NCBI RefSeq assembly: GCF_000445185.1
Contig: NZ_AVAF01000140.1
Coordinates: 1-32,357, forward strand
Length of the DNA: 32,357 nucleotides
Direction: 5' to 3'
Origin: Thermoanaerobacter sp. A7A
GTDB taxonomy: Bacteria > Bacillota > Thermoanaerobacteria > Thermoanaerobacterales > Thermoanaerobacteraceae
Part shown: in pieces, positions 1 through 23,104 of the stretch
Layout: each line of letters begins with the position of its first letter
How positions within the stretch are numbered: position 1 is the stretch's first letter
Position numbers and translations under genes: made by a program
The notes under the pieces: generated by a model
What the model saw: the letters and a program-made list of their open reading frames with translations, nothing else
Told to the model about the DNA's origin: nothing
The model's database searches: none

Positions 1-150
1 GCTAAACTTAGCAAGCTCGAAAGACGGAGGCGGGGCTGGAGCCACGGATGGCGGAAGCGGCCACCTGAGACAGGATGTCGAATGTGGCCGGAACCCCGCT
101 GGAGTCTGAGAGCGAGCGTTAGTTTAGCCTGCTTTGTCGCTGGAGCAAAC
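1..150 (+). ncRNA. Highly structured GC-rich RNA element (possible HEARO/omega-RNA-like), may extend left of window
   Basis: The stretch is far richer in GC than its surroundings and folds into nested helices. These are GCTAAACT (1-8) with AGTTTAGC (121-128), GCTCG (15-19) with CGAGC (113-117), AGAC (22-25) with GTCT (104-107), CGGGG (31-35) with CCCCG (94-98), GGCCAC (59-64) with GTGGCC (84-89), and GACA (69-72) with TGTC (76-79). Small hairpins sit at 34-43 and 51-58, the latter closed by GGAA, a GNRA loop. Purine-rich unpaired bases favour the plus strand as the RNA. From memory only, pieces such as CGAAAGAC and TGGAGCAA resemble IscB omega-RNA (HEARO) sequences. The alternative is the 3' end of a TnpB gene with its RNA, because frame 2 is open up to a TGA at 107-109. 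No IscB or TnpB gene is visible. The structure is well supported; the class is not. Confidence 0.55.
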
Positions 151-192
151 TTGCAAAATGCCAATCAAAATTATACTTTGTGTACAGTCTCA

Positions 193-209
193 CACTCCTT
201 TTCGGAGTG
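193..209 (-). terminator. Weak hairpin just after the ABC ATPase gene
   Basis: CACTCC (193-198) pairs with GGAGTG (204-209) around a five-base loop, three bases beyond the ATPase stop codon on the minus strand. No T-run follows on either strand, so it may be a processing or pausing hairpin and not a true intrinsic terminator. Confidence 0.3.
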
Positions 210-212
210 CCT

Positions 213-935
213 TTACAAAATCTTACTTATAAATTCTTTTGTCCTTTCATTTTTTGTATTGTAGAAAATATCTTCTGGCGTCCCTTCTTCAATTATCATT
301 CCATCGTCCATAAAAATGACTCTATCTCCCACTTCCCTCGCAAAACCCATCTCATGAGTGACAACTACCATCGTCATTCCTTCATTAGCCAATCCTTTCA
401 TGACGTTTAAAACTTCTTTTACCATTTCAGGGTCAAGGGCTGATGTGGGCTCATCAAAAAGCATAATATCTGGCTGCATAGCTAATGCCCTTGCAATTGC
501 AAGTCTCTGCTTTTGACCGCCTGAAAGCTTAATAGGGTACTCGTCCTTTTTGTCTAAAAGCCCTACTTTTTCAAGTAAGCCCAAAGCTATCTCCTCAGCG
601 GTTTTTTTGTCCATTTTTTTCACTTTAATAGGAGCTAAAGTTACATTTTCAAGAGCTGTCAAGTGTGGAAATAAATTAAAATGCTGAAAAACCATCCCTA
701 CTTTTTGCCTTATCTTATTGATGTTTACTTTTTTGTCGTTTATTTTGATCCCTTCAATATAGATTTCTCCTTTAGTAGGCACCTCTAAAAGGTTTATACA
801 CCTTAAAAGGGTACTTTTTCCCGAACCACTTGGTCCTATTATCACAACAACTTCTCCCTTATTTACGTTTAGACTTACACCTCTTAATACTTCTAAATCC
901 CCAAAGGTTTTATATACCTCATTAACGCGTATCAC
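213..935 (-). CDS. Polar amino acid ABC transporter ATP-binding protein
   Basis: This is the nucleotide-binding subunit that powers amino acid uptake at the inner face of the membrane. The 240-residue product has Walker [10 protein letters not shown], a Q-loop ([10 protein letters not shown]), the ABC signature LSGGQKQR, Walker [13 protein letters not shown] and the switch histidine in VVTHE, all in the order and spacing of the GlnQ/HisP/ArtP group. I place the start at the GTG at 935: AGGAGG lies about ten bases upstream, and the protein then begins directly with the family's [12 protein letters not shown] longer open frame to a TTG at 965 has no better ribosome site. The start overlaps the permease end by 14 bases, typical of coupled translation. 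It is the last gene of the binding protein-permease-ATPase operon. The exact substrate (glutamine, cystine, arginine or other) cannot be read from the sequence. Confidence 0.93.
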
Positions 936-1583
936 CAGCCCTAAGCCTCCTTTCAAAGATTCCAAGGAGTCTTGAAAAGATGAAGGTCATTATAAAATAT
1001 ATAGCTGCAATGATGATGTAAGGTTCGAAATACTTATAAGTAACGCTTTGTATAATGTCTGCTTGCCTTGTAAGGTCCGCAAAGCCTATTACTGATACAA
1101 TAGCTGATTCTTTGAGCATCACGATAAATTCATTTCCCAAGGCAGGAAGGATATTTTTATTGCCTGGGGAATTATAACATACCTCATCGCCATAGCATGT
1201 GTCATGCCAAGGGAACGAGCTGCTTCGTTTTGACCGGGGTCTACAGCTTGTATGCCTGCTCTTATAATTTCGGCAACATAAGCAGCGCTATTTATGGCAA
1301 GAGCAGAAACTCCTGCTGTAAAAGCTGGTATATCTATTCCAAATTGCATAAGGCCATTATATATCAATAAAAGTTGTACCAAAAGAGGAGTACCTCTTAT
1401 AATTTCAACATAACTGGCTCCTATAAAGCTTATAGGTTTTATAGAAGACATTTTAATAAGAGCTATGAATAGACCTAATATAACTCCTATAGTCACTGCT
1501 AAAAATGTGAGTTTTAAAGTCATGAGAAGGCCGCTTACAAATAAATGACTGTATTTTAGCATGCTCAAAAAATTTACACTCAT
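922..1583 (-). pseudogene. Polar amino acid ABC transporter permease, frameshifted
   Basis: HisM/GlnP-type inner-membrane permease in two frames. The first part (1583 down to about 1160) has the N-terminal membrane segments, the IIRGTPLLVQ motif and the coupling region ending in AARSLGMTHAMAMRYVIIPQAIK. The family then expects NILPALGNEF. Here the reading frame goes wrong and stops at 1119, while the correct continuation (GNEFIVMLKESAIVSVIGFADL, then a last membrane helix) is in another frame ending at 922. The break is at a five-base T run on the plus strand (1154-1158), A5 in the message; A6 would restore the frame. It could be a real mutation, a sequencing error or a slippage site. The ribosome site GGAAG lies seven bases before the ATG. 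Intact, it would be about 220 residues, the normal family size. Confidence 0.85.
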
Positions 1584-22879: not shown

Positions 22880-23104
22880 GCGTTTTTTAATAAAATTTTC
22901 TAATTTGCTTAAAGCCTCTTTGTTTACAGTTGCTGCTTTTACGTTTTCATCTTTAACTTCCATAAGCTCTTTTCTTAAAACAGATATATTTTTTGGTGCA
23001 GTAATCCCCAACTTTATTTGACCATCGTCAATTTCTAATATTTTAATTTCTATATCTTCCCCTATAACTATGGCTTGACCTACTTTACGCGTTAGAATAA
23101 GCAT
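22877..23104 (-). CDS. csrA: Carbon storage regulator CsrA, translational repressor
   Basis: The 75-residue RNA-binding dimer begins MLILTRKVGQAIVIGEDIEIKILEI, continues KLGITAPKNISVLRKEL, and has the RNA-contacting Leu4/Thr5/Arg6 strand and the VLRKE region. It is longer than enteric CsrA (about 61) because of a C-terminal helix ending LENFIKKR, as in the Firmicute forms that bind FliW there. It overlaps fliW by 20 bases. In Bacillus CsrA represses hag until FliW, released from flagellin on filament assembly, sequesters it; the same circuit is expected here given the hag leader sites. Confidence 0.97.
   Translation of the reverse strand: MLILTRKVGQAIVIGEDIEIKILEIDDGQIKLGITAPKNISVLRKELMEVKDENVKAATVNKEALSKLENFIKKR

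What the first reader, a model, noticed from the sequence alone, without database searches (positions are those of the whole stretch)
1..150. Orphan structured RNA at the window edge, possibly a stand-alone omega-RNA/HEARO
At least six nested helices, including the terminal pair 1-8/121-128, occur in a GC-rich island within AT-rich DNA, with GNRA-type and purine loops on the plus strand. No protein gene explains it. If it is an IscB-type omega-RNA (guide at its 5' side, outside the window) or a TnpB-derived RNA, it sits without its nuclease gene. It may also be a new RNA class. The resemblance to HEARO is from memory of short words only.
Basis: partly seen in the sequence, partly recalled or inferred. 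Interest (0 to 1): 0.65.

Follow-up and report, generated by a model that had tools for sequence, protein, structure and literature searches.

The report
Terminator-inserting mobile element encoding folded RNA
The folded RNA at the window's edge is the right-hand three quarters of a small (about 265 bp) jumping element of the bacterium Thermoanaerobacter; it is moved by an IS1182-type transposase, inserts at transcription-terminator hairpins and duplicates them, and it spreads a conserved RNA of unknown function (TwoAYGGAY-like) around the genome.

Summary
The structure is real, including the 1-8/121-128 helix, but it is not HEARO or omega-RNA (no RF02033 hit in the genome). It is the truncated right part of a ~265-bp element, cut by the contig edge; complete orthologs in relatives supply the left ~77 nt. 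The whole element folds at z = -9. The assembly holds 19 complete and many contig-cut copies. They share imperfect terminal inverted repeats (CAGACTGTAGACAAAC... / ...CTTTGTCAACAAACTG) with a 1560-bp IS1182-family insertion sequence, so they are MITEs of that IS. 18 of 20 copies are flanked by direct repeats that are each one complete terminator hairpin (null 1.35%). At the window's own site three relatives have a single, empty terminator, two have the same insertion with the hairpin duplicated, and one has a different copy in opposite orientation, also with duplication. The RNA covaries strongly (21 of 66 pairs changed on both sides; 0 of 500 shuffles). It aligns full length to Rfam TwoAYGGAY (RF01731), below cut-off here (ortholog 37.8 vs 43 bits) and above it in sister families, where the same core sits in elements with other ends. 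Two GGA-loop hairpins are almost invariant. What the RNA does is unproven; a CsrA decoy is the best published guess.

The parts
1..191 (+). right ~190 nt of a ~265-bp MITE (left ~77 nt lies beyond the contig edge); plus strand is the RNA-like strand
   Evidence: 75-97% identical copies elsewhere in the genome; complete orthologs L119/L191 and L187
1..128 (+). TwoAYGGAY-like folded RNA core, inner helix pair 1-8/121-128 and everything inside it
   Evidence: fold, covariation on 20 copies, RF01731 23 bits at 35-91 in the window and 37.8 bits full length in the ortholog
41..52 (+). hairpin 1, GCC-ACGGAT-GGC, GGA loop (GGA in 40/40 aligned copies of two lineages)
69..79 (+). hairpin 2, GAC-AGGAT-GTC, GGA loop (36/40 copies)
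150..165 (+). 3' half of the outer helix (window ...TTGCAAAATGCC; ATGCAAAAT in most copies); its partner lies outside the window on the left; 9 of 16 pairs of this helix have two-sided changes among copies
   Evidence: helix 2
175..191 (+). right terminal inverted repeat of the MITE (diverged: ACTTTGTGTACAGTCTC; most copies ACTTTGTCAACAAACTG)
192..210 (.). right copy of the duplicated terminator hairpin (ACACTCCTTTTCGGAGTGC) of the glnQ-like operon; the left copy is beyond the window, probably just before C72:4979
213..965 (-). ABC transporter ATP-binding gene (glnQ-like, identified by eye) whose terminator was the target; it reads towards the element

Best explanation
The feature is the right part of a non-autonomous transposon (MITE) of Thermoanaerobacter. 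An IS1182-family transposase encoded by full-length copies elsewhere recognises the shared terminal inverted repeats and inserts the element at the foot of intrinsic-terminator hairpins, so that the whole hairpin ends up as a direct repeat on both sides. The target gene thus keeps one hairpin before the element and another, with the original T-run, after it. Between the ends the MITE carries a folded RNA related to TwoAYGGAY (RF01731), under selection for RNA structure and for two GGA-loop hairpins. SHOWN by sequence: copies, ends, hairpin duplication, empty sites, a second insertion in the opposite orientation at the same site, an IS with the same ends and target, covariation. INFERRED: that this transposase does the moving; that the RNA is made, by read-through from a neighbouring gene (no convincing internal sigma-70-like promoter in the two copies scanned); that its GGA loops bind a GGA-binding protein, most plausibly CsrA, as a decoy or as a local 3'-UTR regulator. 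I give the last step about 0.35; the confidence below is for the element and its RNA body, not for that step.
For: Multicopy: (41 TIR sites against 2 for the reversed control). Hairpin direct repeats; 18/20 versus 1.35% of random stretches; 44 of 46 scorable copies in further records, mostly Thermoanaerobacter, median 23 bp. Empty, occupied and oppositely occupied orthologous sites. IS1182: NF033551 E 1.6e-38; two complete 1560-bp IS in G005 with the same ends and 20-bp hairpin repeats. IS1272, also IS1182 family, is reported to target stem-loops, and whole-stem-loop duplication was drawn as model pathway b (PMC5678879). RNA: full element z = -8.96; 97.5% of cells paired, 21/66 pairs with two-sided change versus 8.5 in shuffles, 0/500; independent set from another family 19/43 versus 7.4, 0/500; G-U 31 versus A-C 8 on the plus strand, p = 3e-4 by cell. 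TwoAYGGAY: full-length 1-168 alignments. A csrA gene is in the genome, in this very window.
Against: Window and genus copies stay below the RF01731 gathering score (best 40.3 versus 43). Two of 20 copies lack a hairpin-type repeat, and 24 of 70 copies in the larger set gave no clean repeat by my script. No expression data. The complete IS1182 is seen only in a relative; this genome's own copies are contig-cut or degenerate. csrA is in 35 of 37 genomes of the class, so co-occurrence carries no information. Compensatory changes in a near-palindromic DNA could partly come from template-switch correction rather than RNA selection. The G-U excess is not significant when counted by column. Orientation relative to host genes in Thermoanaerobacter is not significantly biased (30 versus 18, p = 0.11).
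Confidence: 0.85

Rival explanations
1. A purely selfish MITE: the body is only a long imperfect DNA palindrome (cruciform) kept for transposition, and no RNA function exists.
For: Nearly the whole element is one long hairpin. Insertion orientation in Thermoanaerobacter is close to random. A second element with the same ends and an unrelated body also folds strongly (L083, z = -4.9).
Against: G-U is favoured over A-C on one strand in the own-genome set (31 versus 8). GGA loops, which no palindrome requires, are kept in 40/40 and 36/40 copies across two families whose joint alignment has only 57% mean column identity. In the sister family the same core sits in elements with other ends, mostly in sense orientation upstream of genes (16 versus 3).
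Confidence: 0.3
2. A stand-alone omega-RNA/HEARO or TnpB-derived guide RNA.
For: Transposon-linked, GC-rich, folded, without a protein gene.
Against: No HEARO match anywhere in the genome at E 10; no transposon RNA family matched in the window. The element has inverted repeats at both ends and long direct repeats, unlike IS200/IS605. Covariation supports the TwoAYGGAY architecture instead.
Confidence: 0.01
3. A cis-acting RNA (attenuator or mRNA-stability element) dispersed by transposition: it acts on the gene it lands next to.
For: Rfam lists RF01731 as cis-reg. In G022/G023 copies lie mostly 24-70 nt before a start codon in sense orientation, 16 versus 3 (binomial p about 0.004, weaker if two orthologous pairs are merged). 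In Thermoanaerobacter copies lie directly 3' of genes and almost never between divergent genes.
Against: In Thermoanaerobacter the position downstream of genes follows from terminator targeting, and orientation is not significantly biased. Weinberg 2010 rated the motif as probably not cis-regulatory (PMC2864571). Whether neighbouring genes share a theme was not tested.
Confidence: 0.25

Closest known systems
TwoAYGGAY RNA, Rfam RF01731
   Same: Full-length 1-168 alignments, a junction with two GGA-loop hairpins, outer helix; sister-family copies exceed the gathering score (59.9 bits).
   Different: Thermoanaerobacter copies score 17-40 bits, below 43. Here it is embedded in a MITE, a link I found in none of the TwoAYGGAY papers that I opened.
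IS1182-family insertion sequences (IS1272 of Staphylococcus, PMC5678879)
   Same: Transposase family NF033551; target is an inverted repeat (stem-loop), not a sequence.
   Different: IS1272 replaces its target stem-loop without duplication; here the complete stem-loop is duplicated, the outcome that paper only drew as model pathway b. The passenger here has no transposase gene.
Bacterial MITEs that yield small RNAs (Coxiella QMITE1/2; review PMC10969869)
   Same: Short, TIR-bounded, non-autonomous, multicopy, strongly folding transcript.
   Different: Here the internal RNA shows compensatory evolution and is related to a recognised structured-RNA family; the target is the terminator hairpin.
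CsrB/RsmZ-type CsrA-sequestering sRNAs (function only)
   Same: GGA in hairpin loops; RMfam predicts CsrA sites in TwoAYGGAY (PMC4333381).
   Different: Two sites per copy dispersed over dozens of loci instead of many sites in one RNA; binding untested.
HEARO / omega-RNA RF02033
   Same: Transposon-associated non-coding RNA.
   Different: No sequence or model match; no guide arrangement; different transposon type.

Membership tests
TwoAYGGAY (RF01731) | score at or above the curated gathering score (43 bits) | tested here: not met
   23.0 bits window, 37.8 ortholog, 40.3 best copy in the genome. Met by G022/G023 copies, up to 59.9. So: divergent relative, not filed as a member.
TwoAYGGAY (RF01731) | two GGA-loop hairpins inside a multi-helix core | tested here: met
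   GGA in 20/20 and 18/20 own-genome copies; architecture aligned by cmscan
TwoAYGGAY (RF01731) | covarying helices | tested here: met
   0/500 shuffles reach the observed values
MITE of an IS1182 element | terminal inverted repeats shared with an autonomous IS1182 IS | tested here: met
   CTTTGTCAACAAACTG identical at the right end, CAGACTGT.GACAAA at the left
MITE of an IS1182 element | no transposase of its own, under about 500 bp | tested here: met
   261-275 bp in 19 complete copies
MITE of an IS1182 element | target duplication and empty orthologous sites | tested here: met
MITE of an IS1182 element | trans-mobilisation by that transposase | not testable with these tools
   needs a transposition assay
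HEARO/omega-RNA (RF02033) | covariance-model match | tested here: not met
   0 matches in the genome at E 10
HEARO/omega-RNA (RF02033) | adjacent or trans IscB-type nuclease using the RNA | not tested
   not pursued after the model match failed
CsrA-sequestering sRNA | binds CsrA and is expressed as an RNA | not testable with these tools
   only GGA-loop conservation and csrA presence were checked

The most novel reading that the evidence does not exclude
TwoAYGGAY is a mobile RNA module that has been carried by more than one kind of miniature transposon: IS1182-type ends with terminator duplication in Thermoanaerobacter, other ends with apparent 8-12-bp repeats or none in sister lineages. It seeds the ends and leaders of dozens of transcripts with GGA-loop hairpins, making a dispersed decoy or regulatory network for CsrA or another GGA-binding protein.
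Probability: 0.3. Interest if true: 0.75.

Novelty: new variant of a known kind. Interest (0 to 1): 0.5.

Why it matters
It gives an Rfam motif of unknown function a genomic life: a transposon-borne RNA that lands at transcription terminators. It also provides many natural examples, with empty sites, of a transposition event that treats a hairpin as its target and duplicates it whole, an outcome only drawn as a model for the IS1182 family in the paper read here. Both points can be tested directly (transposition assay, CsrA binding, RNA-seq).

Tried and rejected
HEARO search of the whole genome: no hit. Other Rfam hits in the window were far below threshold. csrA co-occurrence as a test of the decoy idea: csrA is in 35/37 genomes, so no information; the two genomes that lack it also lack the RNA, but that is weak. 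Internal sigma-70 promoters in two copies: no more than chance. Orientation bias in Thermoanaerobacter: not significant. Joint MAFFT alignment of the two lineages (A2) was poor, so covariation was tested per lineage. L003 was entered in A3 with a wrong range; A3 is not used for any claim. The 5S rRNA expansion segments known in Thermoanaerobacter (PMC7812874) were considered because they are also inserted folded RNA; that paper gives 41-46-nt segments found only in 5S genes, so no link. Paper searches turned up no report of this element; the library lacks most subscription journals.

Full report
Observation. Window 1-150 folds on the plus strand as described, with the pair 1-8/121-128 and six or more nested helices, in a GC-rich island free of protein genes. 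Taken alone the window part is only moderately better than shuffles (z -2.4), because the left side of the structure is missing: the window begins at a contig edge (G000:C140:1).

Copies. A search of the same genome finds many copies, 75-97% identical. Nineteen are complete, 261-275 bp long; others are cut by contig ends, since the repeat breaks the assembly. A pattern search for the left end finds 41 sites against 2 for the reversed control. The genus is Thermoanaerobacter: the same core occurs in T. wiegelii Rt8.B1, T. thermocopriae JCM 7501 and a Bu09 MAG with dozens of copies.

Ends and target. Complete copies start with (C/T)AGACTGTAGACAAAC or a close variant and end with ...TTTGTCAACAAACTG or a close variant. 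Outside these ends lie direct repeats, mostly 14-34 bp, that are, copy by copy, different terminator hairpins. A hairpin spanning the repeat is present in 18 of 20 copies against 1.35% of random stretches of equal length. In a second set of 70 copies, 46 gave a clean repeat and 44 of those are hairpins, median 23 bp.

Empty sites. At the glnQ-like terminator next to the window copy, relatives G006, G007 and G011 have one hairpin and no element. G005 and G012 have the window's element with the hairpin on both sides. G004 has a different copy in the opposite orientation, again between two hairpins. This shows mobility, duplication of the complete hairpin, and repeated use of one target in both orientations. 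The window's missing left part is readable in L119/L191, and the end of contig C72 (L082) carries the matching flank in the own genome.

Mobiliser. Two contigs of this genome start an IS with the same left end, also directly behind a hairpin; its ORF is an IS1182-family transposase. G005 has complete 1560-bp copies with the same ends and 20-bp hairpin repeats. Stem-loop targeting is known for the IS1182 member IS1272, which however replaces its target; [quoted passage not shown] That this transposase moves the MITE is inferred from the shared ends and target.

RNA. The complete orthologous element folds at -118.6 kcal/mol, z = -9. In 20 copies of the own genome 97.5% of cells pair and 21 of 66 pairs have two-sided compensatory changes (8.5 expected by shuffling, 0/500; slid structures fall to 33-41% paired). 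G-U cells exceed A-C cells 31 to 8 on the plus strand (p = 3e-4 by cell, not significant by column), which favours RNA on that strand over a DNA cruciform. The core aligns end to end to TwoAYGGAY RF01731, below its cut-off in Thermoanaerobacter (best in this genome 40.3, cut-off 43) and above it in another family of the order, where G023 holds 29 matches that covary independently (19 of 43 pairs). Hairpin loops with GGA are kept in 40/40 and 36/40 copies.

Same core, other ends. In G022/G023 the element ends differ, no hairpin repeats are seen, and G023 has no IS1182 match. Flanks there share words longer than expected (mean 7.3 versus 5.9 +/- 0.16; for example TCAGTGATT, TCAAAAATGGTT), suggesting 8-12-bp duplications by another transposase. 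These copies lie mostly in sense orientation shortly before start codons, 16 versus 3. In a third genus (L100, L102, L103, L107, L113) the ends differ again and no repeat is visible. The conserved unit is therefore the RNA core, not the transposon ends.

Function. TwoAYGGAY was described as probably an RNA, probably not cis-regulatory, in human gut, gamma-Proteobacteria and Clostridiales (PMC2864571). RMfam proposed that its loops bind CsrA (PMC4333381). The genome encodes csrA, at 22958-23104 of this window, but csrA is too common for co-occurrence to test the idea. I take the GGA-protein decoy as most likely (about 0.35 for this step), with a local effect on flanking transcripts and a purely selfish palindrome as rivals.

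Verdict.

Noticed in passing
window 22958-23104 (-): csrA (PF02599, E 5.5e-22) lies in the same window, the only match in the genome.
   Followed up: partly
window 1119-1583 and about 1150-1165 (-): The ABC permease next to the glnQ-like gene is split by a one-base difference in a T/A run relative to three intact orthologs; probably a sequencing or assembly error.
   Followed up: yes
L083 1343-1519 (G000:C108:41833-42009, -): A second 177-bp element with the same IS1182-type ends but an unrelated, strongly folding body (z = -4.9), behind a terminator hairpin; G005 has a copy as well. No Rfam match above threshold.
   Followed up: partly
G005 chromosome (L166, L173, L180): 111 matches to the IS1182 transposase model in one relative; at least eight full-length ones belong to the type with the MITE's ends, the rest mostly to other types.
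   Followed up: partly
L126-L165 (G023): 29 TwoAYGGAY matches with their own end sequences and apparent 8-12-bp duplications, mostly just upstream of ribosome-binding sites; the transposase that moved them was not identified.
   Followed up: partly
L019 594-857: One complete copy has an 8-bp non-hairpin duplication (AATTTCTT), so a hairpin is preferred but not always used.
   Followed up: no
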